Below are positions 6,094 to 39,274 of a DNA stretch of 64,000 nucleotides, one piece after another. The DNA is from Cerioporus squamosus (taxonomy: Eukaryota; Basidiomycota; Agaricomycetes; Polyporales; Polyporaceae): the NCBI GenBank assembly GCA_022592435.1, contig JABYQS010000049.1, positions 161,213 to 225,212 of the forward strand, written 5' to 3'. Each line of letters opens with the position of its first letter. The first letter of the stretch is position 1. The notes under the pieces are model-generated. The model was not told the DNA's origin. It worked only from the letters and a program-made list of their open reading frames with translations, and did not search any database. Both the position numbers and the translations under genes were made by a program.

Positions 6094-6948
6094 CTACAGT
6101 CGCGAAGTGTAAGTTCCGGAGGCGAAGGCGAGATACGACTTCAGAGACGACGAACATGTTCCTCCAGGTAGCGTAGTCTGGTTGAACAGACCACCGACAG
6201 GTTGAGCTGGGGTTGAGGAATTGTCTGTGCGATGAATTGAAAAAAATGCTACGGAGGAACGGAGACGCGATAGACTCACCGGGGACATATGCTACGCCTT
6301 CCTCGAGCCTTTCCTGTTTCGCCTTCCGAGAGCTCCGCTGTTGATGTGGGAGTAAGTCTGTGACATTCACCGTTCACGGCCAGTGCACTCACCAGCGCGG
6401 ACGTACGATACCGCCTCGATGCATGCTTGACATCCCGCGACTCTGTGGCAGACCAGCTGTCTCTGTCGAGCATGTCCTCCATATACTCGAGCACTCTGGA
6501 GAATATATGTAGCTGTGAGCCCGTCGCAGGGGAGACGGGATAGGGTCAAACACACTCTCTGCCATCCTCGACGAGCTTCGCGTATTCCTGTCGTCTCTTC
6601 CACTCCGGATAGTTGTTGCCGATCTCTTCCACGTATTCCCCTCCTTCGTCGTGATACTCTTGGGCACGACTGAGCTGATATTCGCGCTGAAGTGTTTCAA
6701 AGCGCCGATGAGGGGACTGGGGGCTTTCGGCAGGCGACCGGTACCCTTGGAAGCATCAAACTTGCGGCTCTTGTCGCCGTTCCGTTTGGATGCCTGCTGT
6801 AGTATCCGCGAGTCAGTGAACGTAACCACACGATGCCGGGAGTCGCGCCTACCGATGACTGAAACATGGGCGTTGGGGAGTCGGGGGAAAATACCTTGAA
6901 CAATGGCTTGAGAACTAGGTTGAAAATCCGGAGAGGGGGGCCAGCCAT
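6094..6948 (-). CDS. Partner-family gene P1, head-to-head with kinase K1 (one-base frameshift)
   Basis: Unknown function; a member of the partner family defined in this window. Exon 1 encodes MAGPPLRIFNLVLKPLFKVF. Exon 2 has the family block GRLPKAPSPLIGALKHF, then EYQLSRAQEYHDEGGEYVEE. Exon 3 reads LEYMEDMLDRDSW with DVKHASRRYRTSAL, exon 4 begins RSSRKAKQE, and exon 5 ends with a Ser/Thr-rich tail and TAG. Between KHF and EYQL the frame must change: one base is missing near 6684-6688 compared with its relatives, whose spacing would otherwise match exactly. All other splice sites and frames are intact, so this is either a sequencing error or a very recent inactivation. No catalytic motif is seen. 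Confidence 0.6.
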
Positions 6949-7380
6949 GGCAACGTGTAGCTCTCGAGGTGCTTTAGAGGGCCCGTGGGGTTACTGCCTC
7001 GGCGCATGATGGGAATGTAGACCTGAGAACGATGTCGAGAGTACAAAGGTTGCCTGAGAAGTACGCAGAACCGCCCAGGATGCCTCGAGCGCGACGAGTG
7101 CTCTCAGGGCAGCGGCATGGCAGCGGGGGCAAAGCGGCTGAGCGACTGACGGCAAGTGACGGCAAGTGGCAAAGAGCAGGCGTCTATATGAGTGCACCCA
7201 CAAATAACCAAATATGGCTCAAAGCAACCAGGAACCCGGGCACGCGCACGTCGTGACGTGACGTGGGAGACTCGCGTGGCAAATGTGCAACCACGTGAGG
7301 GTGTTCAGCGCGTTCGATCGCGTCCGAGTCCGTCACGTACCTTCCTCCTCCTCCAGGCTCCTCCCCCTCCCGCATTCGGC
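6949..7380. promoter_or_regulatory. Bidirectional promoter of P1 / K1
   Basis: These 432 bases separate the two start codons. On the K1 side TGACGTGACGTGGGA lies at 7254-7268 and CACGTG at 7292-7297, 84 bases before the K1 ATG. The same pair of boxes occurs at other kinase genes of the array. A C/T-rich tract directly precedes the ATG. Confidence 0.65.
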
Positions 7381-8873
7381 ATGAACCAGCCACGGACTGA
7401 CCCTGCTAAGCGTGGCCTGCTCTCCGAGAGAGAGACATACTGGCGCGACCGACATGACTGGCTCAAAGAACGCGGATTCGAACTGCGTCCCCGATTCCGC
7501 CCCGGCTGGACTCCTTCGTGGAAAGGAACAAACAGAACGATCATCTCATGCGAAGATGGCATGCGACTCATGGTATGTAGCTTCTTGACGTTATCTCTCT
7601 CAACTGACTTGACTTTGTGCAGCACACGCAAGTCATTGACGCAGTCAGGACGAAGGACGGCGAGATGGTCGCTATCAAGCAGGTAGACAAGTCGGACCAT
7701 CCACAGGAAGTGGAGATAGGACGCTACTTTACCAAACCACCCTTGTCCGACGAGTTCCGTAACCACTGCATCCCTTACTTTGAGGTGCTGCAGGATCCAC
7801 AGATCGCCAACATCGAATTGGTGGTCATGCCTCTCCTGCGAGAGTACAACGACCCGCCATTTGTTACCGTCGGTGAGGCCGTCGAATTCTTCCATCAAGC
7901 GTTTGAGGTATGTAATCATTGCTCGAACAGGTTTCGTTAGTTGATGGTTGAGGGTGCCACCTAGGGCCTCCAATTCATGCACGAACACCACGTCGCACAT
8001 CGGTATGTTGTCGCAGCCGCTGTTCGCAGCCCGTGTTGACACTAACGTGAACTAGAGATATCATGACCCTCAACATCATGATGGACTCGAAGCCCATACT
8101 TCCCGACATGTTCCACCCCACCGCGACTCAGAAGACTCGCGACTTCAAGGGCTACGTGCAACCGTATACACGCACAGCGCGTCCAGTCAGGTACTACCTG
8201 ACGGATTTCGGCTTGTCACGACGATATAGCCCGGACGATCCGAACCCACTCGAGGTGCCCATCTTTGGAGGCGACAAGTCGGTACCAGAGTTTCAGAAGG
8301 ATCCGTATGCGCCCGCAAACCCGTTCCGCACGGACGTGTACTACATGGGCAACTTGATCAGGGAGGACTTCTTGCAGGTTAGACACCGAGACTGCGCTCA
8401 TGAATGAAAGAGCTGATTCGTCAAATGTACAGGTGTACAAGAACCTCACATTCATGTTGCCTCTAGTTGCGCGGATGGTCCAAGACGAGCCAGAGAAGCG
8501 TCCGACCATGGACGTGGTTGTCTCAGAGTTCAAGACACTTGCGTCTAAACTGGGCAGCTTCCAGCTCCGTTCGCGCTTGGTCGAGCGTCGCGACGGCGCA
8601 CTCACGAACTTCTTCAAGACTGTCCACCACACGTCCTTCCGCACCATACCGCACGTCCTCACTCGGCGTCCTGCGCGACCGACCCCAAAGTCGTCGACCT
8701 CGCTAGCTGCTGTTGCTGCGAAAGTCTCTCAGCCCGCACGGGATGCCCGGGCCGCAGAGCCAACACCCAGCACTGTTACTGCCTCTCCTCCAGCGGTCGC
8801 CGTTTCAACGCCCCCCGTTGTCGAAGCGCCATCGCATCGCCCAGATGAGGCGGCCCCACACCCTCCACCATAG
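7381..8873 (+). CDS. Protein-kinase-like protein K1, with long C-terminal tail
   Basis: Five exons (7381-7572, 7623-7907, 7965-8002, 8056-8377, 8433-8873) give 425 residues. An N-terminal module (about 17-60) has the signature YWRDRHDWL, LRPRF, PSW and CED shared by all nine paralogs. The kinase fold follows: VAIK Lys83, HRD at 171-173 with the conserved Asn178, and DFG at 222-224. A GGDKSVPEF activation-segment block comes next, then YMGNLIREDF and an RPTM helix. No clear glycine-rich loop is visible. The catalytic Lys, Asp, Asn and DFG are all present, so activity is plausible. Family knowledge: such kinases are multiplied in agaricomycetes and lack assigned substrates. Unlike its paralogs, which stop about a dozen residues after the HVLTRRP-type motif, K1 adds about 60 Pro/Ala/Ser/Thr-rich residues. 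Confidence 0.85.
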
Positions 8874-10944: not shown

Positions 10945-12325
10945 TCAGGGTGCGGTCGTGCGTGGAGGTGAAGTAGGAGGTGTGGGCAGTGCAGGAAGAC
11001 CACGACGGAGATATCTGGCGGTACGGATGACATGGCGGCAAGCTCGGTACATCCTGCCGACGAAGAATTCGTTCCGGTACACGAATCGTGACCGTAGCGT
11101 CCGCTCGGAGAGTGACAAGCGCAGCTCTTCGAAACGCCTGAAGGCCTCATCTATCGTGAGTCTCTCTTCGGGAACCTTGCGTGTCATATCATCGAGGAGG
11201 GGTTTCAGGAAGTCTAGACTGCGGCTCTTCTGCAGAAGGACAGTCAGCACTGGTGGCAATCGATGAGTCGAGGCACGCACATCCACGAACCACTCCCGGA
11301 TCATGTTCCCGAGGCAGTATACGTCAATCGCGAACGGATTGGACACTTTCCGAGAGGGATCAGTATACTCGGGGACAGACTTGTCGCCTCCGTACGATAC
11401 TGGCGCAACCAGTGCGTCTCCTGGAGCAAATCGGCGTGAGAGGCCAAAGTCGATAATATAGTATCTGGTTGGAAATTCAGTGCGAGTGCGCTGCTTAACC
11501 TTGCGCTTGAAGTCATAGCTTCGGCGTTGAGGGCGTACAGGATGCGGAGCCTCCGAGAGCAGCGGTGTAGGCTCCATCAGGATGTTCACCAAGTGAATAT
11601 CGCTGTAATCTCCCATGTCATGCATATTCAAAGCAAGAGTGTGTCGGTGCATGGCTCACCAGTGTGCGACAAGGTTCTGGTGTATGAAATGTAGGCCCTG
11701 CGGATACGCGGTATTAGCATACTAACGGAGGGCAGGAGGGATGTTCGACGTGCCTCGAACAACTGACGGAAACACTCCACAGCCTCTCCAACCGTGGCAT
11801 ACGGATAGTAATGAATGCGAACAAGATAGGGCATGACAAGCAGCGTTGCGTTCTCGTCAAGCGGCGATCGGAGGACGTCATATAGGGGAATAGAATGGTT
11901 GTGAGGATCCGACGCGAGGGGTTCAGTAGAAAAAAGCCGTATAATGCTCTCTTCCAAGGGGGTGTGAGACTTCTCAACCTTTTTGATAGTGACGACTCGA
12001 CCGTCAGACATTCGAGTTGCATCCATGATGGTCCCGCGCTGTAGTGGAAGCCAGTGAGCAGGTCCGATAGTAGAGTGCTAGTGTTGCTTACCAACATAGA
12101 GTTTCCGTCTTCGCATTGGTAGTAAGGCTTGTCTGACTTTAGCCACGATGGCTGCCAGTCCTCTCGGTACCTAGGGCGTAGCATGTAACCGGCATCCGCG
12201 AGCCATCGTTGATGTTCTCTCCAGAAGAATTCCTGCTCGAACAGACCGCCCTTCATGTTCTTCCAGTAGAGGGGGTGGTCCTTGTGGGGATCCGCTTTCC
12301 GCGGGGGACCCAAACTTTCGCCCAT
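10945..12325 (-). CDS. Protein-kinase-like protein K2, HCD variant
   Basis: It has the same exon plan as K1: exon 1 of 234 bases, exon 2 of 285 bases and exon 3 of 38 bases. The N-terminal module is FFWREHQRWL, LRPRY, PSW and CED. The ATP-site Lys is in VTIKKV and DFG in IIDFGLSRR. The catalytic loop, read across the spliced border at 11617/11660, is AHCDIHLVNILM: Cys replaces the Arg of HRD, but Asp and Asn remain. The activation block is YGGDKSVPEY. The C-terminal part (about 80 residues) is Arg-rich with GRMYRACRHVIRTARYL, different from the HRD paralogs. The intron after exon 2 begins GCACG rather than GT. I chose the ATG at 12325 because the K3 protein aligns from the same point; a further 31 codons lie open upstream. 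Confidence 0.8.
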
Positions 12326-12842: not shown

Positions 12843-14181
12843 ATGGTCGATCCTCAGACCGCCGTTGCTGGCACCAACACTCTTCTCTCAGTCTTGATCT
12901 TTGTCGGATCGCAGCTCTCCCCCTCTGGAATGGTACGCAGGGCAGTCAAAAAAGAGCTTGAAGTCGCAATTCTCCTGAAGGAGAGCGGGGCAATTATCGA
13001 CCCAGAGGACTGGGACAAGATCAACCAGCTGCAAGACCAGTGAGTCCTCTTATTTGTGATAGTTAAAACTGACGTGTGCTCACTTATCTCAAAAGAATTG
13101 CAGAAAAGAAGCTCAACATGCCGAAATGGGGAGAGGTCCTCAAGAGACCGATCAGACTTCTCCTCGACGCACGTCAATACCACACTGCTACTTCTGCCTG
13201 CTTATTTGAGGTTCGGGTACGTTGGTCTCCCGCATTCTACGTGCTCTCCGCTCACTGTGATTACATAGCTTGCCTCTGCGCGCGCCATGGTCGATGCTGC
13301 TCGTGCCGCCGCTATTCAAAATCATGCCAGCAGATCGTCGGCAGGAGACGACGTGACTGTGTCGCAGGACATTGCCCCTCATCACCTCGGGGAGGATGTC
13401 AATTCAAGCAGTTCATCGTTCCAGGATGCGACGTCTGACGACCTACCCCCTGGTGAGTCCAACATAGTTCCTCAGATCGTGCCTACCCTGTGCTCATGTT
13501 GCCGACAGCCTACCACTCTGTCATGCAGATAGAAGATGCATTCACGACTCGCTTCGAAAACGTCCTAGTTCACGCCGGTGCGTGCGCGCGCGTCACCTTG
13601 CATTTCGGAGGTAAGTTCGACATCTATCCATTACCCGGCGTTCGCGGTTGCGCTGACATGGTCACGGTCCCAACTTGTTCTAGTTGGAGACGTCCCAGTA
13701 ACCATCAATCCTCGCGAACATCTTGCCGATATGGCCGTATGGTATGCTGGACCGCTTCTTTGTGAGTGTGGCCCGCGCCTTCAGCCTTGCAGCTCTCGCT
13801 GACGTCGCTACGCTATGGACAGTGTCCGGATATGCGAAGCTGGTTCCTTATGGTGAGTTTGTCTATAACCCCTATGTGGCTATCTACTAACCGCGTGCCT
13901 CGTCCATTCTAGACGACAGTGACTTGGATCGGCTACCGGAGATAGAGATTGGCCACTACAAACAAGGATACAACCTCGAGTTCTTCGGGATGTCCTGGTC
14001 TACGCCCCAAGACCACCCGGTGAGGGTGAGCAGCTTCCCGGACGACGATGGTGTGTCGCTCGCGAGCCACGAGGCGACCTATGGCGGGGACCGGGAGACA
14101 ATCGTGATGTTCGATGAGGACGAGAGGTTAGAGAAGCTCGAGATACTTCGCCGTCGGGCTGGGCTCTCGAGTCGGTGGTAG
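12843..14181 (+). CDS. Gene C, unknown protein head-to-head with K2
   Basis: No family recognised. A plausible spliced frame starts MVDPQTAVAGTNTLL and contains one hydrophobic stretch (about residues 12-30). It continues through DPEDWDKINQLQDQ, IAEKKLNMPKWGEVLKRPIR, a Ser-rich linker (SSSSSFQDATSDDLPP) and a FENVLVHAGACARVTLHFGG segment. It ends in an acidic C-terminus (IVMFDEDERLEKLEI). Six or seven small exons are needed, with phases that fit. Its position and spacing relative to K2 equal those of the partner genes at the other kinases, but I see no partner-family motif in it. A membrane-anchored or membrane-associated protein is possible. Confidence 0.6.
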
Positions 14182-14481: not shown

Positions 14482-15871
14482 TCATGAGTCGAACTTGCGC
14501 GGAGGTAAAGGAGGAGGTATGGGCAGTGCGGGAAGACCATGATGGAGGTATTTCGCGGTCCGAATAACGTGGCGGCAGGCCCGGTACATCCTGCCCATGA
14601 GGAACTCGTCGCGATACACGAATCGTGACCGTAGCGTCCGTTGGGACAGGGACAAGCGCAGCTCTTCGAAGCGCTTGAAGGCCTCATCTATCGTCGGCCG
14701 CTCCTCAGGGACGTTGCGTGTCATGTCTTCGACGAGAGGTCTCATGAATTCGAGACTGCGGCTCTTCTGAAGTAGACAGTCAATGCCCGCAGCATTTGAA
14801 GAGTGGAGAGGCAAAGACGCACATTCACGAACCACTCTCGCATCATGCTTCCGAGGCAGTACACGTCGATTGCGAACGGGTCGAACACCCTGTGCGAGGG
14901 GTCCTTGTATTCGGGAACAGACTTGTCACCGCCATATGACACTAGTGCAACCAGTTCGTCTCCCGGGGAGAATCTGCGCGAAAGGCCGAAGTCGATGATT
15001 TGGTATCGGGTCGGACTTTCAGTACGAGTACGCTGCTTGACCTTGCGCTTGAAGTCGTAGCTTCGTTCAGAGCGTATAGGATGCGGAATCTCCGAGAGCA
15101 GCGGTGTAGGATCCATGAGCACGTTGACCAGATGTACGTCGCTGTAGGTGCAGTGTTATGCGAGATGTGGGAAGCAAAGATCTCGTGGTGCGTCTCTTAC
15201 CAGTGTGCGACAAGGTTATTGTGCATGAATTTTAGGCCCTGCAGAGGCGCTGCATAAGCATACTACGCAATAGCGGAGACAGCAATGGATGACTTGCCTC
15301 GAACAACTGACGGAAACATTCTACAGCCTCCCCAACCGTGGCGAAACGATACTTATGGATGCGAACGAGGTATGGCATGACTAGCAGCGTCGCGTCCTTG
15401 TCGTGTGGCGATTGGAGGACATCGTAGAGAGGGATGGCATGATTGTGAGGATCGGATGCGAGGGGCGCAGTGGAGAAAAGGCGTATGATGCTCTCTTCAC
15501 AGGGAGTGTAAGACTTCTCAATCTTCTTGATAGTAACAATCCGACCATCAGATATTCGGGTCGCATCCATGATAGACCCACGCTAGAGCGGAAGGCCAGT
15601 GAGCAGGCCCGAGAGACAATCGTCCAACGTTACTCACCAGTATAGACTTCCCGTCTTCGCATTGGTAATTGGCTTTGCCTGACTTCAACCATGATGGTTG
15701 CCAGTCTTCTCGGTATCGGGGCCGTAACATGTATCCTGCGTCTGCAAGCCACCTTTGATGTTCCCTCCAGAAGAAATCCTCCTCGAAGAGGCCGCCTTTG
15801 ACATTCTTCCAGTAGAGAGGGTGATCCTTATGTGGATCCTCTCTCTGTGAGGGACCAATCAATCCTTCCAT
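14482..15871 (-). CDS. Protein-kinase-like protein K3, HCD variant
   Basis: This is the closest relative of K2, with the same five exons. Catalytic residues are Lys in VTIKKI, HCD in AHCDVHLVNVLM (spliced across 15145/15201) and DFG in IIDFGLSRR. The intron after exon 2 begins GCAAGT, a strong GC-AG donor. It ends in the same Arg-rich GRMYRACRHVIRTAKYL tail. The ATG at 15871 aligns with K2; 25 further open codons lie upstream. It has no divergent partner gene: the upstream DNA runs into relic sequence and then the 3' end of K4. The 300 bases to gene C are a convergent spacer. Confidence 0.8.
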
Positions 15872-16461: not shown

Positions 16462-17779
16462 TTACGGCGAGGGGGTGGGTATGGGTTTGCGGAAAGAGAG
16501 AAGATTCGGGAGAGCACGGGTAGATATGTGGTGGACGTCCTTGATAACGTTCATGACGACCGAATCTCGTCTCTCGACCAGTCGTTCTCGGAGCTTCCAG
16601 CACGAGAGCTTGGCTCTGATAGCCGCAAACTCGGAGACGACCTCGTCCATTGTCGGCCGCTTGCTGGGCTCCTCCTGGACCATACGCGCGATCAATGGTT
16701 CCATGAACTTGAAGTTCGTGTATACCTGATGACATTTGAGACCATACAGCGCGAAAGAGGGTTGACACCGCGGGAGTACGCACTTCGCAAAAAAATCTAC
16801 GTATGAGATTTCCCATGTAGTAGACGTCCGTGTGGAAGGGGTTGCGGGGCGTCTCATAGTCGTCTTGAAATTCGGGAACTGTCTTGTCGCCACCTATGAT
16901 AGGTAACTCCAGCGGATTGGTTTCCTCGGGGATATACCGCCTGGACAACCCGAAGTCCACGAAATAGTACTTTACCGGTCGTGCGGTGCGCGTGTACGGT
17001 CGTACTTGCGTCCTGCCGTCGAGCATGCGCCATGGGCGTTGAGGATGGAACATCTCCGGCAGAATCGGCTTGGAATCCATCATAACATTCAGCCTCGATA
17101 TGTCACTAAAAGAAAGATGAGTGGATAGTCGGGTCGGAAGGCGGGCAAACGAACCGATGAGCGACGTGGTGCTCATGCATGAACTGAACGCCCTGAACGA
17201 GGGGTGAGTATACTCGACGATAACCAGAGACAAGAACCGCTCCCTTACCTCAAACGCCTGGCGGAAGAATTCCACCGCTTCGCCGACAGTGGCGAATTTT
17301 GGGTCATCGTACGTCCGCAGGAGGGGCATCACCATCAGACGTCTGTCCGCATCGTACGGATCGTCGATGACCTCGAGGATGGGAACGCAGTGATTTCGAG
17401 GGTCGGTCGAGAGCGGAGGGGAGGAGAGAAAGAGAGCAATGTCGCTCTCAAAGGGGTGTATGGACTTGGAGTCATGTTTGATGACTACTAGTTGTCCATC
17501 ATTGGTTCTGACAGCGTCCAAGACCTTGGATGTCTGCAAGGACCGTGGTCACGGTGTCAGTGAGCGAAGTAGTATCGAGCAGAGAGGGAAGATCCTGACC
17601 ATCACTCGGATCCCATCTTCCGACTGAAAGCGAGACTTCCCAGTTCGTTTCCACGAAGGCTCCCACTTGGGGTCGTAACGAGGCCGAAGGGTATAACCAG
17701 TACGTTTGAGCCACTCGTACCGTTCCCGCCAATATGTCTCGCCTTCCGTGAGCGCGCCTGGTTCCTCCGTGTTATCCAT
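16462..17779 (-). CDS. Protein-kinase-like protein K4, no visible partner gene
   Basis: Five exons on the K1 plan. The N-terminal module is YWRERYEWL, LRPRY, PSW; here the CED becomes SED (QSEDGIRVM), losing the Cys that most paralogs keep. Catalytic motifs are intact: VVIK Lys, HRDISRLN (spliced across 17107/17155) and VDFGLSRR. The activation block is GGDKTVPEF. It ends after a PNLLSFRKPIPTPSP tail, the usual length of about 370 residues. The promoter has the array boxes in the right order. A plus-strand ATG at 18294 lies at the distance expected for a partner, but its frame shows no partner motifs. Confidence 0.82.
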
Positions 17780-17938: not shown

Positions 17939-18915
17939 CGCGCGAATTGCCGCTCCGATTCCCTTGAACCATTTCCGGTTACGCCGCCGACCAGGTTCCT
18001 GTCCGTGTCGAATGGGTGCGAGCAGCTGCCAGTGTGCTTGCTACCAGCGCAGATGGCGGGACTCCGTCTCCATGGCACCTTCTCATGCGCTCTCTTCCCT
18101 GTCGTCGCGCAAATTTAGTAATTAAGCAATCAGTTGTAGTTGAACAGGCTGGTCCGCAACTTGGGTATAGTGGACTGGCCACCATTTGTATGACCTTCCC
18201 AGCCTTCGTCAGGCTCGGCCGCAACGAACTTGTGTTGTCATCGGACCGGACGGTTCAGTTATCATATTCTTAGTGTGATCGTCGCCGATCCGGATGTCAG
18301 GAAGGCACCTGACTCAACAGAGCACCCAGCAAACGAATTCCATCCATGTTCACAACCCGCTTGATGTCTCCCGGTTCCCCGTTACAGTGCCTTGTGAGCT
18401 GACCATGGTGCTAACCATAGCAACTCGCCACAGCAGCGTTCCGTCGGTAGCTATCGCGTCACTGGCGTCCTCGAGGGCTTATATCCATACACGGGGCCGC
18501 GGATGCAGACTGCTCGTTCTTCTGTGAAGGTATCAGCCACCAAGATCAGGGTGCGAGAACAGGCGAACATGCCCGTTTAGCATTGCGGTCCGGTGTGTGC
18601 ACGAGGAGCCGTTCCGAGCAAGCAACAGGAAGAGTAGAAATGTCATTCGAGACTCGTGCAATCGCCGCATGCAGCGAAACGACACTACTACCAGTCCAAG
18701 CGTCCACGTACTAGGTTCAAAGCACTCGAAGAGGGCTTTCCGATGATCTGGGCACAGAGACAGAATCTGACATGGCCAACAGTAGATGGGTGAACGAGCG
18801 AGCTATCGTCAAAATCTCAGTCAGACGTGGTCGACATCGAAGCAACGATGTCCGAGAAGACAGAGCAGTCTGGTTGTATGCATGAGTTGGCTCATTGCGG
18901 GTGGAAGAGGCCCAT
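17939..18915. other. Gene-poor stretch with a diverged repeat
   Basis: No supported gene. Bases about 18294-18400 carry an ATGTCaGGAAGGCACC start and a GATGTCTCCCGGTTCCC block. These resemble 35540-35630 and, less closely, 31370-31470. The 77-codon frame from 18294 has no recognisable features and may be a decayed first exon. Confidence 0.35.
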
Positions 18916-19682
18916 CTACGCACAGTCGGTAGAAGGGGGTGGCATCGGAGTCCTCGGTTCGAACAACGGCACACTGTCTCGTGGATCAACACCTGGGCTC
19001 GAAGGTCGTGACAGGTCGCGCTGTTCAACATCCTCTACGCGTGGTGGTGAGTCGCGACCAGGATGGGGATAGCAGGTCAGAGCAGACTTGGGCTTACCTG
19101 TCTCTGGCAATCTGGGCACCATATCGTTGACGTACTCCCGTTCTGCGGTCATGGACGACCGCTGTGAAACCGAAAGTCAGATAATTGGTCAGTGCAGACC
19201 TAGCGAGCTGCTCACATATGCGGAGGTACGATACTTGCGAGCTTCGTGCTTGATCGTACGGTTCTTCTCGCGGTCCCACTTGGGTTGATCGAATGCATCG
19301 TCGAGGTACGACGCTACGCTGGAGTTGTCATGATCGTAGAATATGCCAATGAGTAGAGTCTCGAGAGTACATATACAAGTCCACGTACGTGTTGCCATTG
19401 GAGACTAGCGCGCCAAACTGGGGCTTCTCCTTCCATCCTGGATATTCCTCCCCAAGGCCTTTTACCAGTCTCCGACCCTCGACGTAGTACTGTTGAGCGG
19501 CATAGAGTTGATAATTCGACATGAGATGCTTGAGAGGCCCGAGGAGCTTCGGGGGTGGTTTGGGTAGGCGGCCGACGGGGAGCTCAACCTCAGGCTGAGT
19601 GCTCGAATCCTGGAGGTTCTATCTCAGCATCCAATGGTTACCTCGACCCCCCAGATGTGCCGCGTACCAATGATGCTTGCAT
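18916..19682 (-). CDS. Partner-family gene P2, head-to-head with K5
   Basis: Unknown function. A short first exon (MQASL) joins in phase to NLQDSSTQPEVELPVGRLPK. The conserved N-terminal domain follows: PPPKLLGPLKHLMSNYQL, YYVEGRRLVKGLGEEYPGW. Exon 3 gives VASYLDDAFDQPKW and RTIKHEARKYRTSAY. Exon 4 gives RSSMTAEREYVNDMV. The last exon is Pro/Asp-rich and ends at TAG in 18916-18918. The Gly-Arg-Leu-Pro-Lys block, the YQL helix, the DQPKW block and the RSS exon match P1, P4 and P5 in order and intron position, which supports a real, intact five-exon gene. It is 522 bases from the K5 start. Confidence 0.65.
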
Positions 19683-22598: not shown

Positions 22599-22798
22599 CG
22601 TGTTCCGTGAAGTCGGGGTGGACCGTGGATAGCGTTGAATTCGGGGAGAGTGTTGGTGATCGGTGAGCGAGGGCACGGTGATGGTTCCAAGAGTTTTTCA
22701 CAACCTATACTTATAGCGCGTCCTGACAGGAAAGCAGACAATGAGTAGCCTTCACCTCCGAGACTAGCGTTCGAGAACTCACGACGCGGAGGCCATAA

Positions 22799-25615: not shown

Positions 25616-26926
25616 ATGGACTCATCTCCGTACAATCCCTCAGAAAGAGGACGACTCATTGAAGGCGAAATCTTCTGGAGAGACCGGTACGACTGGCTAC
25701 GGCAATCTGGATATGAGTTGCGCGCGCGGTACCGTCCAGATTGGGTTCCATCTTGGAAGGGGACCAATAAGTTGACCCTATTGTGCGAAGACGGTATCTC
25801 GCTGCTGGTACGCTTCTTTGATTCTGTCAGAACTAACGGCTCACGAGTCACTAGGTCAGCAGAGTTATCGACGCCATACGGACGAAGGACGGGCGAGTAG
25901 TCGTCATCAAACAAGTGCAGAAATCCGTACATCCGCACGAAGTTGATATTGGCCGCTACTTGACTTCCCCTCCTCTGTCCGATGATCCTAGAAACCACTG
26001 TTGTCCCATCCTTGACGTGCTCCAGGACCCGCGCGACCCCGACATCCAACTCGTTGTATTGCCGTTTCTCAAGCGCTATAACGATCCAAAGTTCGGCACA
26101 GTAGGGGAGGCCGTCGAGTTCTTTCGGCAAGCACTGGAGGTATGTGCGGATGGCTCGCGACTTCGCTACCGAGACTGACAGCGTTGGGCGCAGGGACTGC
26201 AGTTCATGCACGAACACCACGTCGCTCATAGGTGCGTGATCCCATGTTCGACTCGTCACCTCGTTCTTAGTAGGCGCGTTCGCAGAGACTGCATGACGCT
26301 CAACGTGATGATGGATCCGAAACCCATGTTCCCCGAGTTGTATCATCCGGGCTTGCCCATGAAGACGAGAGACTTCAAGGGGTATGTCCACCCATACTCG
26401 CGCACGGCGCGACCCGTCAAGTACTACTGGACGGACTTTGGCCTATCTATACGCTTTGACCCGCAAGACACGAATCCGCTTGCGGCACCCGTTCTTGGCG
26501 GAGACAGGACCGTGCCAGAGTACAAGAAGAACCCCCGTGCTCCTTGCAATCCCCTTCGCGTCGACGTATACAACGCAGGAAACTTGATCAGGGAAGATTT
26601 CCTGCAGGTCATTGATCCCACACATCGAGCTGTCAATCTGCGACTCATCTGCCACATTCCAGATATACAAGAACTTCGCGTTCATGGAACCTCTGGTCGA
26701 GCGCATGTGCAGCGAGGACCCGGAGAAGCGTCCCACAATGAGCGAGGTCGTTTCCGAGTTCCAGAAGATCCTGTCGAATCTTCGCGGTTGCCAGCTCCGT
26801 CAGCGGCTAGTGGAGCGGAAAGACGGCGCGTTCATGAACCTCTTGAAGGGCGTCCATCACGTATCTTCGCGCACCATACCCAACCTCCTCGCGTTCAAGT
26901 CCCCTCTCCCTACGCCGAAAGCATGA
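25616..26926 (+). CDS. Protein-kinase-like protein K6
   Basis: About 373 residues in five exons. The start MDSSPYNPSERGRLIEGEIF aligns with K5; 42 further open codons upstream are promoter sequence shared with K5. Catalytic residues: VVIK Lys, HRDCMTLN (spliced across 26231/26285) and TDFGLSIRF. The Arg after DFGLS is replaced by Ile, and GGDRTVPEY follows. Near-identical to K5 over the last exon (QRLVERKDGAFMNLL), so duplication or gene conversion is recent. The 3' flank leads into repeat copy 2. Confidence 0.85.
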
Positions 26927-27186
26927 TATGTCCACTTTCGTCACTATCTAGGGCTGGTACACGTAGCGCTGCTGGGCGGCTGAACACACCTCCATCATCC
27001 AATATCTTGTTCGCATTTACAATCACCGTCAGCATAGTGCCGCTGTGCAGTATACCTCGCCGCTCTCAATATCTCGCCTATGTGTCTCCCTGCAATGTCC
27101 CGCACGCTCTCTACCGTCTACTTGCTTATATCTTTGTGCATTGCTTTCGTATGGTAGCTTGTGTAGGATCGATTACTAATGAATAT

Positions 27187-27973: not shown

Positions 27974-29281
27974 TCATGGCTTGGGACTAGGCAAAGGGGA
28001 GCGACGCATGAGGAAGTGCGGTACACTGCGGGTAGATGTGTGGTAGACGTCCTTCAGGAAGTTCGAGAACGGCGTGTCGCGGAATTCGAGTAACCGAGAC
28101 CGAAGCTGGCACTTGGACAGTTGGGAAGATATCTTCTTGAACTCCGATACCACTTCGTCCATGGTGGGACGCTTGGACGGGTCGTCGTCGACCATGCGCG
28201 TGACCAAGGGCTCCATGAACGTGAGGTTCTTAAACACCTGTGCCGCCGGGTCAGCGTAACAATCATAACACGTCGGATGATGGCGAACCTTCAAGAAATC
28301 CTCCCTAATGAGGTTACCCACGTAGTAGACGTCAGTCGGGAACGGGTTGCACGGGACACCAGGATCCTTTTCGAACTCGGGCACAGACTTGTCTCCTCCA
28401 AGAATAGGATACTCCATGGGATTGGGGTCGTCGGGGCTATATCTGCGCGACAAACCGAAGTCGGCCCAGTAGTACTTGACCGGGTGCGCAGTGCGCGAGC
28501 CTGGACGCACGAATTTCTTGAAGTCCCGCGTCCGCCATGGTGCAACGAAGTGCCACATATTGGGCAGGAGGGGCTTCGCATCCATGAGTATGTTAAGGGA
28601 CATCGCATCTCTACAAGGGCGGTCAACATTGCGTTGGCTGTGATACTGGATGGCTACGAACCGGTGCGCAACACGGTGCTCATGCATGAATTGAAGACCC
28701 TAGAATGTTCCGTCAGTCGTATAAATTGGTACGAGAGTCCAGGTCACTCACGCACCTCAAATGCTTGTCTGAAAAATTCGACAGCCTCCCCCACTGTCGC
28801 AAACTTCGGCTGGTTGTAGGACCTGAGGAACGGCATGACGATGATCTGGATGTCGGGGTTTCGAGGATCTTGCAGCACCTCCAATATGCGACAGCAATGG
28901 TTGCGGGGATTGTCGGACAGGGGAGGGGACGTCAAGAAGCGTCCGATCTCGACTTCGTATGGATGTACGGATTTGGAGACGCGCTTGAAGACTACCATCT
29001 CACCGTCCTTCACTCTGACGGCGTCGATTAATGACGGACGCTATTTGCAATGAGCATAGTAAATCAGTAGAGAGGTAGCGAGTACACACCTTCAGATATA
29101 AGCCGTCCTCACAGAAGAGTGGAATCTTGTTCGTTCCTTTCCACGAAGGGACCCACCCAGGACGGTAGCGCGGACGCAGTTGGTACCCAGACTGCAGAAG
29201 CCAGTCGTGATGATCGCGCCAGTACTTCTCCCCATCCAAAAGCTCCTTATCCTCAGAGTCCGCAGCTGGCGTAATGCCCAT
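27974..29281 (-). CDS. Protein-kinase-like protein K7
   Basis: About 370 residues in five exons. The start MGITPAADSEDKELLDGEKY leads into YWRDHHDWL, LRPRYRPGW, PSW and CED. The ATP-site Lys is in VVFKRV, with Phe for the usual Ile. HRDAMSLNILMD is read across the intron at 28614/28668; DFG is in YWADFGLSRR. The activation block is GGDKSVPEF. It ends HFLMRRSPLPSPKP. I chose this ATG over one 39 codons upstream because the family N-terminus begins here and the upstream part overlaps the promoter boxes. Confidence 0.85.
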
Positions 29282-29744
29282 CTTGAAAGGAAGACGACGT
29301 GGTACCCTGAGGAGGAGGGAGGAGGGAGGATGAAGACGTTGCCGCGTCTGGCGGACCTCGGACCCACGCGAAACCGTGGGCGCCTTGAGTCGAACCACCC
29401 ACGTGGCAGAACAATATCATCGCCAACCTCCCACGTCTTGCCAGTTCTGCACCATCGGTCGTCTTCAACCAAACTCGGCCAATTGTGTATTCGTGAGAGT
29501 CGCCGCCTGGTCGCCGCTAGTGAACATCATTGCGCTCACTGCGCCCACAATCCCTGCCGGTGGTTGCTTCCCCCCTCTGCCGAAACACGGAATCCTTCTC
29601 AGGCATCCCTTGTTTTCTCGGATACTTCTCACAAACGCGCACTTGTGGTCAGCCTGTCAGGATGGCCCGTCATATAACCCTCTCAGTACGCTCCGACGGG
29701 GGTAACATACCACCGTCCGTTCATTCCCTGCTCATCCACTTCCC
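29282..29744. promoter_or_regulatory. Bidirectional promoter of K7 / P5
   Basis: On the minus strand AAGACGTGGGA (29439-29429) and CACGTG (29405-29400) precede the K7 ATG, the nearer box by 119 bases. The order and spacing match the K1 and K8 promoters. Confidence 0.6.
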
Positions 29745-30723
29745 ATGTCTCTCTCTACCGGGTCCGCCCCAATACCAGCGCCGCCGAGGACCACGGTATG
29801 TGGCAGTTATTACTTCCAGCTCCAAGTACTAACGGCACCTACAGGAAGAGAAAGAGGCTGCCGGTGTGAAGGGGTCTTCTTTAGCAGGGCCCTCGGGGTG
29901 TAAACTGCCCATACCACCAAAGCGCCGCCCCCATCCCTTAGAGCTTCTTAGTCCGGACTACCAGCTCGCGCGTGCCATACAATACTTCGAAATGGGGGAA
30001 CGACTGGTTGACCAAATCGGAGAGAGCCCTGAATGGCGTGCCTCGCCTGAGTATGCTGCGCTCGTGAATGATATTGGAAGGTAAGTCGTCCATTGTTTGT
30101 CGACGGTGTCGGTTCGTTGACAGGCATGCGAAGGGTTTGTGACACCATCAACAAGCTGCTCGGTCAACCGACATGGTCGCTATCGCAGTGCGTCGATGTC
30201 AAGCGTATGTCAAGGAGCACCTGCGCGCTGGCGACGGTGAGCTGTCCTTCTCTCCTGTAGTTGAAGCAGCACTGATGAGACGCCGGACGACTATCAGCAA
30301 ACATCCAACACTGTTAGACAGGAGGCACGCAAAAAGACGATCCCACCCCCAAGTGAGCCATCAGCCCCGACGCATTCCTGCTCTCCGCTTATATTTTTCG
30401 GCTTGCTAGAACGAGTAGATGAACGACCGCCGCTAACCCCCACGGAGTCAGAGGCTCCTATGGTGGGAGATGGTATCGAACCGCGCGTCCCGGTGCCAAA
30501 TGCACCACACCCAGTTCCAGACGTGTCGGGGTTGACGGATGGTAAGAGTCTATTGCACCGCGCCGATACCAATCGTCGCTAACCACGAGCTCTCACAGTG
30601 TCCTCCCTGTTGTCGTCACTTCCCGATACGGAGACAGACACGCAGTCTATGTCGACCCGCGACGACCTTGACGAGTACTCGTCCACCGATGGTTTGATAT
30701 ACCCGAGCCTCCCCGTTGTATGA
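29745..30723 (+). CDS. Partner-family gene P5, head-to-head with K7 (model uncertain)
   Basis: Unknown function. Exon 1 is MSLSTGSAPIPAPPRTT. Exon 2 has RPHPLELLSPDYQLARAIQY, MGERLVDQIGESPEWRASPE and YAALVNDIG. A later exon has CDTINKLLGQPTWSLSQ and VDVKRMSRSTCAL, matching the DQPKW/IKHxAR block. The last exons read RVDERPPLTPTESEAPMV and SSLLSSLPDTETDTQ with TGA at 30721-30723. The GAT-G intron before the last exon matches P4. The join between exons 2 and 3 (30081-30122) does not keep frame with the obvious GT and AG sites, and exon 4 also needs an alternative acceptor. Either the gene is decaying, the sequence has small errors, or splicing is unusual. Confidence 0.5.
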
Positions 30724-32365: not shown

Positions 32366-33372
32366 TTATGCCGCGACTGCGACAGAGCCCGATGGGGAGA
32401 GGAGTCCACGACGGGATACAGCGTCGCCGTCCGTATGTACTCCCGGCGGAACTGCAGGAGACTCCTCGGCGCCGTGGGTCGTGGCATCCAACGGCACCAT
32501 CTCGATTCCTACGGTGTTCTCCGGTGCATTGAAAGGGTCCAGCTGCTGAAGCTGGAGGGCGAGCTCTCCTGTACGACCAGTAAGACCAGTCAGTGTAGGT
32601 GCGAGGACTACAAACACGGGTACTTGCCTAGAGATGTGAACTGCCTAACGGACTCTAGCATCTCGCACCTTGGACCCACAGGAGGCGAGTTCCACGGTGA
32701 GTTAGGTACCGACGCGAGAGCCGAAGCTGGACCAGGGTGTAAAGCACGGTGATGCGGTCCAAGTACAAGACCTACTCACGCATTCCGCTGTCGTCTACCG
32801 ACCCAACGGGCATGTAACAGTCTTCACTCGCACTGATAGCCTCGGATGAAAGCTGGTCAAGATGATTACTTGAGGGTCAAGTCTCGAACGGATGCGGGTA
32901 TACTCACGACGATATTGACCATATTCTCTCGCGTCCCGTGTTTCCAGCGCCGGAGAGTCGACGCATCCAGGTTCCCGCTCTGGTACATCGTTTCCAGATC
33001 ACGCCGATACCTGTGAGCGCGATCAGTGACACTGACTGCATGCAAATGAATACCGAACACCGACCTCTCCAAGGTCTTCTTCAGTTCGGGCGCGGGGCCC
33101 TTCCGGAACTGTGGACTCTTCTGCATGGCATCGTCAAGGATGGCCTGTCCTTTGCGCATATATGAACGCCCTTTGTAGGCTTGATATTTAGCCAGGCGGT
33201 GCTTTAAAGGCCAGATCCAGTGACCAGCGGGCTCGTCAACAGCCAGAATGCGGTCGCAACCGAGCCTCTTCTGTAGAGTATGCAGTCATGGTGATGAGGG
33301 AAGAACACAACCGTCCTCGCAAGGCTCACTCACCGGCGTAGCTCCCGAGTTGGCCTCAGCTCTCCGTGCCAT
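32366..33372 (-). CDS. Partner-family gene P6 (type II), head-to-head with K8
   Basis: Unknown function. Exon 1 is MARRAEANSGATP. Exon 2 is KRLGCDRILAVDEPAGHWIW, then PLKHRLAKYQAYKGRSYMRK. Exon 3 is YRRDLETMYQSGNLDAS and RRWKHGTRENMVNIV. Exon 4 is SSEAISASEDCYMPVGS and VDDSGM. The final exon contains LTGRTGELALQLQQLDPF and ends SVAVAA with TAA at 32366-32368. It aligns exon by exon with P7. Compared with type I, the GRLPK block is replaced by a WPLKH/WPFKK block and the DQPKW block by MYQ. The basic KxxxR segment is kept. Confidence 0.62.
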
Positions 33373-33850
33373 GCGATCGCAGGGGTCTCCAGGATCCCCA
33401 AGAAAGAAAAGTCAGAAGCGTGAGGAAGTCTTCGGCGAGGTCCTGAGGCTTATGAGGCCGGGGCTGGCTATCTCCAGACGTAAAGATCATGTCAGCCGCA
33501 CAAGTACAAGAACAGGGCAAAAAATCTCAGGGAGCCCCGCCCCGTGTCCGTGGTTGGCCGGGGATGATGCACGAAGACGCCGTCACGAAGAAAGGAAGGA
33601 TGCAGCAGGCGAGGCAACTACATTCCCCAGAGACTCGGAGCATCCAGAGCCCGCCATCCGGATCGTTTAAGGCAGCGGCGCAGACGCGGAGGAGGATGGG
33701 CGACGCGATGTGACGTGACGTGGGAAAGTCCCAATTGTGCAAACCACGTGTGACAGCCCATAGACGCTTTGTGTTCCATGAACGCGCTCTCCCCGCGAGC
33801 TTCTGGATGTTCTTGCCCTTCACCACCTCCGTCGCCGTATTCGCTCCTCC
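33373..33850. promoter_or_regulatory. Bidirectional promoter of P6 / K8
   Basis: TGACGTGACGTGGGA at 33711-33725, identical to the K1 box, and CACGTG at 33745-33750, 100 bases before the K8 ATG. A GACGCGGAGGAGGATGGG block at 33683-33700 recurs at the K9 promoter. Confidence 0.65.
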
Positions 33851-35176
33851 ATGAACTATGCTGACTGTGAAGAACTGTTTCCTGGCGGGCTCTCTGGGCT
33901 GGAGGTCTACTGGAGAGACCGTTACAGCTGGTTGAGCAGTGCCGGATACCAGCTGCGGCCGAGGTACAAGCCCGACTGGAAACCTTCATGGCAAACATCC
34001 AAGAAGTCTCGTTTCGACTGCGAAGACGGGGTACACCCTCCGGTGTGTCTCCTTCTAGTGGTCCTGTCTCATACAGCTGACCCGCTGGCCCAGGTGGAGA
34101 GAGTCATGGATGCTGTCAGAACGAAAGACGGTACCATAGTCACGATCAAACGCATACTTAAGTCTGTACACCCCTTCGAAAGCGAGATAGGGCGCTTTCT
34201 CTCATCTCCTCCTTTGACCTCGGACCCTCGAAACCACTGCTGTCCCGTTCTCGACGTGCTCGACGATCCTGAGGATTCCGACGTACAACTCATTGTGATG
34301 CCGTTGCTCCGACGGTACTACGAACCCAAACTCGCGACGGTTGGCGAAGCCATGGAACTTTTCCGTCAAATGTTGGAGGTAGCTCCGTGCATTCTCGCAT
34401 CAAATTGTCGCTGACCGCGCATCTGCGTTCTAGTGCCTCCAATTCATCCATGAGCAACACATCGCACATCGGTCCGGCTCTGTTCTTTTACGCGTCAGCC
34501 CAATTCAGTGACAGTGACGTTTGCAGGGATATCACAAAGTTGAACGTGATGATGGATTCGACGCCCATCCTTCCGGACTCGTTCCACCCCCAGTCAATCC
34601 GTATGTCGCGGGATTTCAAACGCTGGGTATCCCCGCGTTCGCGCACTGCCCATCCCGTCAAGTACTACATCACCGACTTTGGGCTGTCAAGGCGCTACAG
34701 TGCGGAGGAGACGAACCCGCTTGAGGTCCCCATCTTCGGAGGCGACAAGTCGGTTCCCGAGTTCCAGAAGGACCGACACACTCCTCGGAATCCCTTCCAG
34801 ACTGACATCTACTACATGGGGAACTTCATCCGGCAGGACTTCCTGAAGGTGTGTTATCTGTCCCCTTCTCCCTGCGTCGGTGTGAAGATTGACGCGAGCG
34901 TCTACTTTCAAGGTTTATTCGAACCTGACGTTTATGGAGCCGCTCATCGCCCGTATGGTGCAGGACGATCCAAGTAAACGCCCCACCATAGATGAGGTCG
35001 TTGTATCTTTCAAGGAGATCCTGTCTAGGCTATCGAGCTGCAAATTCCGGGCAAGGCTCGTCGAGCGGCAGGATAGCCCAGCGTTGAACTTCTTGAAGGA
35101 CCTGCACCATGTATCCCTCCGCACATTGCCCTTCTGGCTGACCCGTCGTCCCGCGCTCCCTTCTCCAAAAGCGTAG
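33851..35176 (+). CDS. Protein-kinase-like protein K8
   Basis: About 375 residues in five exons. The N-terminal module is VYWRDRYSWL, LRPRYKPDW, PSW and CED. Catalytic residues: VTIKRI Lys, HRDITKLN (spliced across 34473/34526) and TDFGLSRR. The activation block is GGDKSVPEF. It ends FWLTRRPALPSPKA. The C-terminal helix reads EEVVVSF where other branches have VVSEF. Closest relative is K9, including about 200 bases of 3' flank. Bases 35177-35440 are that flank. Confidence 0.85.
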
Positions 35177-36463: not shown

Positions 36464-37461
36464 TCACGCCGCGACTGGAATAGCACCCGAAGGCCCCGGG
36501 CCGAGGAGCTCGTCGTCGGGCCCTTCGGGAAGAGATGCAGCAGACTCCTCGGGAACCTCCTTCACGATATTGAGCTGCGCGACCGCCCACTCGAGAGTGT
36601 TCTTGAGGGCAGCGGACGGTTCGGTCACCTGAAGGTCGGGGCCCAAAACTGTACGACAGTCAATGACTATGCAAGAACATCCGAAGCCGGTACTTACACA
36701 AGTGCTCTTGCTGTGAGAGAACCCTAGGCTCTACGCTATCATGCCTGGGAGGCGGCTGCAGCGACGTAGATGTGGTTGTCAAAGACGTAATAGACGAGGC
36801 TAGGTAATAACGGTAAGTACGGCAACGCGAAACCACCTAGGAGCGTACTCACGCATGCCGGTGTCGTCTTTGGCTCCAACTGCTATGCAGTACGTCCCTC
36901 TGGCTTCGAAGGCTTCCGTCGAGATCTGAATGGAATGTCATTGGTGGGTAGATACCAAGAGCCGGCAAAACTTACGACAATATGGTTCCTGTTATTCCGA
37001 GCGCGACGCTTATAACGGCGGGAGGCTGTTTTGCTAATACGATCAGGGTTTTGATACATGTCCTGTAGGTCCTGTACGACGCTGTCGATTAACAGGGATC
37101 AGAATCAGCGACGCTTTACCGTGACGAGGTCATGCACGAACTAAGAGTGCTCCTCGCGCAAAGCTTCAGCAGGTCCCTCTCGAAACGCGTCGCTGTTCGC
37201 TTCAGCACGTTTGAGGACGCTGTTTCCTTCCTGTTGATACGAACGGCCCTTGTGGACTTGATACGCAGTGATCCATTTCTTGAAGGGCCAAACCCAGTAG
37301 GGCGCAGGGGTTGCGGTCAAGACACGATCAGCATTGAGATGTTTCTGATAACGCAGAATGCGGTCAGGAGATGTTGCAACTTCCTGGGTTGAACGACTCA
37401 CCGAAATGTCTCGAACCGCGAAAATGTCAGCCGGGACATCAGCTTTGGCTGTCTGTGCCAT
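36464..37461 (-). CDS. Partner-family gene P7 (type II), head-to-head with K9
   Basis: Unknown function. Exon 1 is MAQTAKADVPADIFAVRDIS. Exon 2 is KHLNADRVLTATPAPYWVW, then PFKKWITAYQVHKGRSYQQE. A GTTCGT donor inside the apparent stop TAG lets exon 2 continue as HSY and VVQDLQDMYQNPDRISK, then RRYKRRARNNRNHIV. Exon 4 is ISTEAFEARGTYCIAVG and AKDDTGM. The last exon has LKNTLEWAVAQLNIVKEV and ends GAIPVAA with stop at 36464. Without that splice the reading frame would end after LREEHS. The exon-by-exon match with P6 supports the model. Confidence 0.62.
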
Positions 37462-37947
37462 GAGACAAAGTCGAAGTCGCCGGGACCTCGTAGCAAGATG
37501 AGAAGAGGAAAGTGCGAGGAAGCCGCAGCGGAGACCCAGGCACTTAAGTATCAGGTTCGAGGTGGCTATCGCACGGACGTAAAGATGTCGGCGAACATGC
37601 CAGCAAGGGTACAATAGCAGGGGGACACAATCTCAGGAAGCACCGCGTGCGCCAGGGATGATGGGCCGCTGTCATAAGGTCAGGAAGAATCGAGCAGGCG
37701 AGGCAACCACAGAGTTCCACAGAGCACCCACTTGGCCCAGCATCCGGATCAGGTACAAAGCAAGGTACGTAAGTAGACGCGGAGGAGGAGGGGCGGCGTG
37801 ACGTGGGAAACTCCGCTCATTGTTCAACACGTATGACAAGGGGCGCAGGCGCCCTCCATTCCCAGCCATGAACACTGGCATGCTCAGGCTCCTTCGCGCT
37901 GCAGCGTTCGACCACCATCTCCCCGCTCTGCCCAATCTTCTGTCTCC
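37462..37947. promoter_or_regulatory. Bidirectional promoter of P7 / K9
   Basis: TGACGTGGGA at 37799-37808 and a degenerate CACGTA at 37828-37833, 114 bases before the K9 ATG. The GACGCGGAGGAGGAGGGG block just upstream matches the K8 promoter. Confidence 0.55.
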
Positions 37948-39274
37948 ATGAAATATGACAGTCCTGCGCCGTTTCCTGGCGGGCTGCGAGGTATGGAGGT
38001 GTACTGGCGAGACCGGTACGACTTCCTCAGCGACGCCGGGTACCAGTTGCGGCCGAGGTACAAGCCTGACTGGGTACCTTCCTGGCAAGCGTCCAAGAAA
38101 TCCCGGTGGGATGTCGAGGATGGGGTCCCCGTGGAGGTGCGCTTTTAGACCCCCTGCACTACCACATGCTGACGCATCGGCACAGGTCGGGAGGATCATG
38201 GACGCGGCCAGAACTAAGGACGGCACCATAGTCGTGATTAAACGTATATTCAAGTCCGTGCATCCTTTGGAGAGCGAGATTGGGCGCTTCCTATCCTCCC
38301 CCGCTCTGGCCTCGGACCCTAGAAACCACTGCTGTCCCATCCTCGATGTGCTCAACGACCCTGAAGAACCGGACCTGCAGCTCATCGTTATGCCGCTTCT
38401 TCGGCAATATGACGACCCCAAACTCACGACTGTAGGCGAAGCGATGGAGTTGTTCCGTCAACTGTTCGAGGTAAACATATTCACGCATGTGTTGAATGTC
38501 CGGCTAACTCTGGATCCATTGCACCGGCAGTGCTTGCAGTTCATGCATGAACAACACGTTGCGCATCGGTTCATCGTGTGCGTCCCCGCGCTCAGATACC
38601 TCGTTGCTGACACTCCTGTCACTAAGGGATATCTCCAAGTTGAACGTGATGATGGATTCGCGGCCTATCCTGCCGGATTCGTTTCACCCGCAGTCAACTG
38701 AGATGACGCGCGACCTCAAGCGTTACATATCTCCGCGGTCACGTACGGCTCACCCCGTCAAATACTATCTCACAGACTTTGGCCTGTCCACCCGGTACAG
38801 TGCTGAGGAAACGAACCCGCTCGAAGTCCCGATCTTCGGTGGGGACAGGACAGTTCCTGAGTTCCAGCAGGATCGCACTATACCTCGCAATCCCTTCCAT
38901 ACCGATATATACTACATGGGGAATCTCGTCCGGCAGTACTTCCTACAGGTATGTGTACATTCACGTCATCGGCATCTAGCTCCAAGCTCACGGTTCGTGC
39001 TATTCCACAGGAGTATACGAATCTTACCTTTCTGGAGCCCCTTATTGCCACCATGGTTCAGGACGAACCAAGCAAGCGCCCCACGATGGACGAAGTCGTC
39101 GTGTCTTTCAAGGAGATCCTGTCCAAGCTGTCCAGCTGGAAGCTCCGAGAAAGGCTCGTCGAGCGAAAGGACAACGTCGCCGTGAACTTACTCAAGGACT
39201 TGCACCACGTATCCTTCTGTACAGTACCGTTCTTGCTGACCCGTCGTCCCGCACTTCCTACCCCCAAAGCGTAG
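37948..39274 (+). CDS. Protein-kinase-like protein K9
   Basis: About 375 residues in five exons. The N-terminal module is VYWRDRYDFL, LRPRYKPDW, PSW; the usual CED reads VED. Catalytic residues: VVIKRI Lys, HRDISKLN (spliced across 38567/38627, acceptor CTAAG) and TDFGLSTRY, where Thr replaces the Arg after DFGLS. The activation block is GGDRTVPEF. It ends FLLTRRPALPTPKA. It is the last kinase of the array. Bases 39275-39470 repeat the K8 3' flank. Confidence 0.85.

What the first reader, a model, noticed from the sequence alone, without database searches (positions are those of the whole stretch)
6094..39274. Repeated head-to-head kinase/partner cassettes
Six kinases (K1, K5, K6, K7, K8, K9) each stand divergently next to a member of one unknown gene family, and K2 next to another unknown gene. 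Start-codon gaps are 432, 522, 512, 463, 478, 486 and 517 bases. Such repeated pairing with constant spacing across diverged copies, in both orientations, implies selection for co-expression and a functional pair, for example kinase with substrate, adaptor or inhibitor. Established: similar kinases are expanded in agaricomycetes. Inference: this is a paired, diversifying system, possibly for recognition or conflict; the role is not shown.
Basis: partly seen in the sequence, partly recalled or inferred. Interest (0 to 1): 0.9.

Follow-up and report, generated by a model that had tools for sequence, protein, structure and literature searches.

The report
Co-diversifying fungal kinase–partner gene pairs
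In this fungus one family of protein kinases has multiplied while many copies kept a fast-changing companion gene facing them head to head, and at two spots the two gene sets of the strain differ far more in these pairs than in the DNA beside them, which is how self/non-self recognition genes often look.

Summary
Of nine related kinases in the window, six stand head to head with one partner family (P) and K2 with an unrelated gene, at the stated gaps. Each of seven P members is recovered by a profile of the other six (E ≤ 1.5e-7). Three P queries to the 54-Mb assembly match (E ≤ 1) only beside these kinases. Distant kinases on four other contigs face a second partner family, Q: 8 of 8 genes divergent, none found elsewhere with one query. 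Partners are coding (8 of 8 comparisons), change faster than their kinases in 9 of 10 matched pairs, and track them (Mantel r 0.93 and 0.73). At two loci the haplotypes differ 6-44% and 11-25% per 500 bp in cassettes but mostly 0-2% in the one flank examined. Against obligate pairing: five of 12 kinases in the main cluster lack a recognised partner; P1 and P9 look frame-broken. Block duplication explains the repeated layout, not the lasting constraint or the islands. Best reading: a kinase–partner module, probably for recognition or conflict. Function, co-expression and binding are not shown; no other fungal genome could be searched.

The parts
7381..8873 (+). K1 kinase (5 exons; 3' end uncertain)
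   Evidence: VAIK, D..LN, DFG and PE motifs present
10945..12325 (-). K2 kinase
14482..15871 (-). K3 kinase, no partner recognised
16462..17779 (-). K4 kinase, no partner recognised
20205..21524 (+). K5 kinase
25616..26926 (+). K6 kinase
27974..29281 (-). K7 kinase
33851..35176 (+). K8 kinase
37948..39274 (+). K9 kinase
6299..6948 (-). P1 partner; apparent frame break inside the domain; 3' end uncertain
12843..13760 (+). P2, divergent neighbour of K2; no detectable homology to P or Q; 3' end uncertain
18817..19682 (-). P5 partner (6-exon model)
24762..25103 (-). P6 partner, conserved part; 3' end uncertain
29745..30215 (+). P7 partner, conserved part; 3' end uncertain
32908..33372 (-). P8 partner, conserved part; 3' end uncertain
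36991..37461 (-). P9 partner; apparent stop/frame break at the end of the domain exon
7254..7268 (+). ACGTG-core element before K1
20039..20058 (+). ACGTG-core element before K5
25507..25513 (+). ACGTG-core element before K6
29398..29436 (-). two ACGTG-core elements before K7
33711..33725 (+). ACGTG-core element before K8
37799..37808 (+). ACGTG-core element before K9

Best explanation
A two-gene module: a divergent eukaryotic-type protein kinase plus a small, fast-evolving partner, probably mostly helical, encoded head to head with it. The pair has been copied and inherited as a unit, and kinase and partner have diverged together (shown by sequence in this one genome). At two loci the two haplotypes of this strain carry long-diverged versions beside nearly identical DNA (shown, on the one flank that could be examined), which points to diversifying or balancing selection, so the module most likely serves non-self recognition or conflict (inferred). 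Proposed working (inferred): the partner binds its own kinase and holds or gates it, at a membrane in the Q clade, where it has an N-terminal hydrophobic stretch. A foreign partner or kinase, brought in by hyphal fusion or altered by a parasite, breaks the match and changes kinase output.
For: Partner genes found only beside these kinases: P 7 of 7 (three queries), Q 8 of 8 (one query). Kinase clade and partner family go together: clade I with P, clade III with Q. Distance correlation: Q r 0.93, p 0.001, n=8; P r 0.73, p 0.003, n=7; the rows are related and include alleles. Partners coding: third-position excess in 8 of 8 comparisons, p 0.036 to 8e-7, and pN below pS in 12 of 12. Kinases constrained: dN/dS 0.08-0.19 in 13 of 15 pairs, 0.09-0.14 in 7 of 9 re-run on unbroken blocks; catalytic residues present in K1-K9. 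dN higher in the partner in 9 of 10 matched pairs. Allelic islands: C394/C800, 24 of 25 cassette-side bins differ 6-44%, 14 of 15 flank bins 0-1%; KA bins 11-25% against 0-2.2% in 25 of 25 bins from 149.5 kb on. Allelic dS on clean blocks 0.74 for KA and 0.94 for K394a/K800a. All six P promoters share an ACGTG-core element 102-160 bp before the kinase.
Against: Five of 12 kinases in the C434 cluster have no recognised partner (K3, K4, KB, KC, and KA on C434), nor have the partial C334 copies. P1 and P9 look frame-broken; so do KA on C434 and KC on C299. P, Q and P2 show no profile homology to each other (hhalign 1.4, 0.3 and 0.2%), so one shared partner role is not shown. Contig C843, covering window 18.1-29.3 kb, has only 22 substitutions against the window, so no island is seen for K5-K7; KC alleles differ by about 0.4-2.2% per bin with dN/dS 0.69; KB alleles differ 3-5%. 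Q394b/Q800b are no faster than their kinases. Islands were seen with one flank only, in one strain, and partly in unpolished haplotigs. No expression or binding data.
Confidence: 0.45

Rival explanations
1. Passive block duplication: an ordinary lineage-specific kinase and its chance divergent neighbour were copied together; spacing and pairing reflect descent, not a joint function.
For: The P cassettes are paralogous blocks; K5/K6 and K8/K9 intergenic DNA still aligns; several kinases live without a recognised partner; P1 and P9 look damaged.
Against: Partners keep a coding signature although synonymous sites are often saturated; no partner copy was found away from a kinase; a second partner family is paired in the same way on other contigs; allelic islands.
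Confidence: 0.3
2. Kinase with a dedicated membrane adaptor or regulator in ordinary signalling; hypervariability is birth-and-death turnover plus uneven recombination in tandem arrays, not recognition.
For: Kinases constrained; Q partners have an N-terminal hydrophobic stretch; tandem arrays with large haplotype differences, e.g. about 10.8 kb on C299 against 450 bp on C434.
Against: K394c/K800c and K394b/K800b are sister pairs (support 100/99 and 99/97), so positional alleles, yet the c pair is saturated at synonymous sites within one strain beside a 0-1% flank; turnover alone does not readily predict this.
Confidence: 0.18
3. Selfish or toxin-antidote style pair (killer plus resistance) spreading by drive.
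For: Paired genes; the KA partner is present on one haplotype and absent on the other; fast evolution of one member.
Against: No toxicity or drive evidence; the kinase is the conserved member; both haplotypes carry three cassettes at the C394/C800 locus.
Confidence: 0.07

Closest known systems
Fungal two-gene allorecognition and cell-death clusters of ascomycetes (het-S/nwd2 cluster, gasdermin-protease clusters; plp-1/sec-9)
   Same: Passages of PMC10197012 say allorecognition systems often comprise two tightly linked genes, highly polymorphic, with marks of balancing selection, and describe two-gene clusters as functional units; PMC12881547 passages likewise
   Different: Those use NLR, SNARE, gasdermin, protease or HeLo proteins; here a kinase plus orphan families; no phenotype known; linkage of plp-1 and sec-9 is recalled, not read
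Agaricomycete HD mating-type (A) locus with repeated head-to-head gene pairs (recalled)
   Same: Repeated divergent pairs with deeply diverged alleles
   Different: No homeodomain here; Homeobox_KN matches in this assembly lie on contigs C113 and C114
RIPK3-MLKL and HeLo/HELL helical-bundle effectors
   Same: A kinase and a separate protein with an N-terminal hydrophobic helix (Q only; layout, not homology)
   Different: No Pfam HeLo match in five Q members and P2; P parts scanned have no hydrophobic stretch; membrane activity untested
Expanded fungal kinase families such as FunK1 (recalled)
   Same: Lineage-specific expansion of eukaryotic-type kinases
   Different: K1 and K3 match only general kinase models above cut-off, no fungal-kinase model

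Membership tests
Eukaryotic-type protein kinase | Pkinase profile above cut-off | tested here: met
   K1 44.4 bits, K3 50.6 bits, cut-off 31.7 (2 of 9 window kinases scanned)
Eukaryotic-type protein kinase | VxxK-type lysine, catalytic Asp/Asn, DFG | tested here: met
   present in K1-K9; KB, left of the window, lacks DFG
FunK1 fungal kinase family | match to a dedicated fungal-kinase Pfam model (accession PF17667 recalled) | tested here: not met
   for K1 and K3 only PF00069, PF07714 and a sub-threshold SOCS_box row are listed at E up to 1
Fungal two-gene allorecognition module | two tightly linked, co-inherited genes | tested here: met
Fungal two-gene allorecognition module | long-diverged alleles beside normal flanks | tested here: inconclusive
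   seen at C394/C800 and KA, one flank each; not seen for K5-K7 in C843 nor for KC; one strain only
Fungal two-gene allorecognition module | incompatibility or cell death when unlike alleles meet | not testable with these tools
   needs genetics
HeLo/HELL effector | HeLo-type Pfam match | tested here: not met
   five Q members and P2 scanned: five families listed, all weak, none HeLo
HD mating-type locus | homeodomain genes at the locus | tested here: not met
   Homeobox_KN matches on C113 and C114 only

The most novel reading that the evidence does not exclude
The head-to-head kinase/partner cassettes are somatic recognition (immune/allorecognition) loci of a mushroom-type fungus: each kinase is controlled by its own fast-evolving, often membrane-tethered partner, and mismatched kinase-partner combinations formed after hyphal fusion trigger rejection. 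This would be a recognition chemistry unlike the NLR, HET, HeLo and gasdermin systems of ascomycetes.
Probability: 0.2. Interest if true: 0.9.

Novelty: new variant of a known kind. Interest (0 to 1): 0.62.

Why it matters
The abstract start of a 2021 paper (PMC8229728, listing; passages) says somatic incompatibility in basidiomycetes remains poorly understood because current models rest on ascomycetes. If these cassettes are recognition loci they give concrete candidate genes and a sharp test: swap partners between the two diverged haplotypes. Even if they are not, they tie partner families without a Pfam family above cut-off (P5, P6, P2 and five Q members scanned) to an expanded kinase family, turning unknown fungal kinases into testable kinase-regulator pairs.

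Tried and rejected
One partner superfamily: P, Q and P2 share a rough layout (helix-rich N-terminal part, later tyrosine/arginine motif), but profile comparison gave 1.4, 0.3 and 0.2% probability, so I do not claim homology. Mating-type locus: rejected at contig level. HeLo-type effector: no Pfam hit. Haplotig C843 as evidence of broken alleles: rejected, because 41 indels of 1-4 bp against 22 substitutions (plus one 872-bp insertion) look like unpolished long-read errors; the same caution applies to the frame breaks of P1 and P9, for which no overlapping second contig was found among those held, and of KA (C434) and KC (C299). Structure of the P domain: pLDDT 67, one 26-residue helix plus two short ones; too weak for a fold search, none run. 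Kinase relatives in the PDB: 33 weak matches (E 1e-5 to 9e-4) to PAK, MAP3K, AMPK/Snf1 and others, no close family. Ab initio models of P1 pass its frame break with a predicted intron that removes the conserved motif; I did not use them.

Rows dropped: tree and distances use kinases with all four exon blocks (24 rows); the partial C334 copies, the C43 and C299 fragments and the C843 copies were left out. Blocks of KA (d) and KCh2 (b) run past a frame break, which lengthens those two branches; one search repeats nine pairs on unbroken blocks. Partner comparisons use the conserved exon only. One search compares 15 kinase pairs and 12 partner pairs, chosen as alleles or related paralogues, not all possible pairs. 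The ACGTG element was found by looking in the same regions where its density was then measured. Paper searches listed no report of such pairs by title or abstract start; only open-licence PMC papers are held and I read passages of three of them.
Full report
Setting. The window is the right end of contig C434 (bases 161213-225212) of a 54-Mb fungal assembly in 988 contigs that carries overlapping second-haplotype contigs. No file or relatives of this genome are held, and the large protein database was switched off, so comparison outside this genome was limited to Pfam, PDB sequences and papers.

Kinases. K1-K9 share a common exon plan and carry the kinase lysine, the catalytic Asp/Asn and DFG. 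K1 and K3 exceed the Pfam Pkinase cut-off (two of nine scanned). Three more members lie left of the window on C434 (KA, KB, KC). Others are on C800 and its allele C394 (three each), C334 (one complete, up to three partial), C109, C95 and as a fragment on C43; a second query from the distant clade found no further contigs. KB has lost DFG in both haplotypes, yet its alleles show dN/dS 0.13.

Partners in the cluster. Six P genes face K1, K5, K6, K7, K8 and K9; a seventh (PA) faces KA on haplotig C299. Leave-one-out profiles recover 7 of 7 as the best ORF once training members and their C843 copies are set aside (5,082 ORFs). Queries with P6, P9 and PA to the whole assembly found at E <= 1 only members of this cluster and their haplotig copies. 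K2 faces P2, which matches only itself. K3, K4, KB, KC and the C434 copy of KA have no partner recognised. On C434 the DNA between the left flank and KA is 450 bases where C299 has about 10.8 kb including PA, so one haplotype has the KA partner and the other lacks it. The partnerless KA copy on C434 also has an apparent frame break in its last exon.

Partners elsewhere. Opposite the distant kinases the gene finder and tblastx showed a second shared family, Q. Its genome search (one query, E <= 10) returned 12 exon matches, which are 8 genes: three on C394, three on C800, one each on C95 and C109. All 8 lie divergently beside a kinase. C394 and C800 are alleles, so these 8 are not independent; C95 and C109 share about 94% similar, inverted DNA elsewhere and may be rearranged alleles. 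Q proteins have an N-terminal hydrophobic stretch (best 19-residue hydropathy 1.6-2.5). The P parts scanned do not (0.23 or less; first exons of most P genes were not included), and P2 is in between (1.5). K334a faces another gene with a hydrophobic stretch that matches only itself. Homology between P, Q and P2 is not detectable.

Coding status and rates. Eight of eight partner comparisons show excess change at third codon positions. Kinase dN/dS is 0.08-0.19 in 13 of 15 pairs; the others are one saturated pair and KC alleles at 0.74. On unbroken blocks, 7 of 9 pairs give 0.09-0.14, one is saturated and KC stays high at 0.69. Partner exons give 0.07-0.44 in the 11 of 12 pairs where it can be computed, with dS often near saturation. 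In matched pairs dN is higher in the partner in 9 of 10, for example P8/P9 0.55 against K8/K9 0.13 and P5/P6 0.57 against K5/K6 0.08; Q394b/Q800b (0.035) is about equal to its kinases. Kinase and partner distance matrices correlate. In the kinase tree K1, K4-K9 and KA group together (support 86/91) and pair with P except K4; K2, K3 and KC form another clade; the C394, C800, C109 and C95 kinases form the Q-paired clade (99/97) with K334a outside it.

Allelic islands. C394 against C800: of 25 bins of 500 bp up to C394 12.5 kb, 24 differ by 6-44% and one by 0.8%; of 15 full flank bins from there to 20 kb, 14 differ by 0-1% and one by 7.3%. C299 against C434: KA bins differ 11-25%, the bin between KA and KB 18%, KB bins about 3-5%, and all 25 bins from 149.5 kb on 0-2.2%, KC included. 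Allelic synonymous divergence on clean blocks is 0.94 for K394a/K800a, 0.74 for KA, 0.26 for K394b/K800b and saturated for K394c/K800c. Only the right flank could be examined at either locus, apart from 375 bp at 98% on the left of C299. In contrast C843, which covers window 18.1-29.3 kb with K5-K7, has only 22 substitutions, so it may be the same haplotype or a non-divergent allele, and the K8/K9 stretch has no near-identical second copy in the assembly. The island claim therefore rests on two loci outside the window, one of them on the window's own contig.

Promoters. The seven intergenic regions have similar length (mean 487, sd 33). Six share an ACGTG-core element, often TGACGTGGGA or a doubled form, on the kinase's strand 102-160 bp before the kinase start. 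The 8-mer ACGTGGGA is in 5 of 7 regions, reached in 0 of 200 shuffles. ACGTGGG/CCCACGT occurs at 2.05 per kb there against 0.115 per kb in 217 kb of held DNA, a comparison made after the motif was seen. It was not found at K2/P2, nor within 600 bp of the Q-paired kinases; K4 has TGACGT at -159 and KC at -562. It sits nearer the kinase, so it may serve the kinase alone, and shared ancestry could explain it.

Interpretation. Block duplication explains the repeated layout. It does not by itself explain lasting coding constraint on the partners, a second partner family paired the same way, the absence of stray partner copies in these searches, and cassettes far more diverged between haplotypes than the DNA beside them. 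Together these resemble two-gene recognition loci as described for ascomycetes (passages of PMC10197012 and PMC12881547). The mechanism (partner gating the kinase, mismatch changing its output) is inference, and the recognition role is held at moderate to low confidence.

Noticed in passing
C434 148049-149340 and C299 13189-14477 (L009, L014): KB looks like a pseudokinase (DFG lost in both haplotypes), yet its alleles show dN/dS 0.13.
   Followed up: partly
C299 376-11194 (L013, L014): About 10.8 kb present in one haplotype where the other has 450 bp, just 5' of KA; it holds PA and a kinase fragment (8604-9040).
   Followed up: partly
window 22795-23310 and 27183-27698: Direct repeat of about 516 bp, 90-91% identical (seen through C843), downstream of K5 and K6, less diverged than K5 and K6 themselves (dS about 1); younger insertion or gene conversion.
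   Followed up: no
window 18535: Haplotig C843 has 872 extra bases here, between K4 and P5.
   Followed up: no
C843 (L011, L012): 41 indels of 1-4 bp against 22 substitutions relative to the window: looks unpolished, so gene breaks on haplotigs are unreliable.
   Followed up: yes
C95 and C109 (L022, L023, L026, L027): Kinase/Q pairs on both, with about 94% similar but inverted DNA elsewhere on the contigs: possibly rearranged alleles.
   Followed up: partly
C434 about 147205 (L009) and C299 about 24290-24310 (L015): Apparent frame breaks in the last exon of the partnerless KA copy and in an exon of the KC copy on C299; real damage or assembly error.
   Followed up: partly
window 1540-4094 and 4299-5227: By eye (not searched): a CCR4-like LRR/nuclease gene and an aldo/keto-reductase-like gene left of the cluster.
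   Followed up: no
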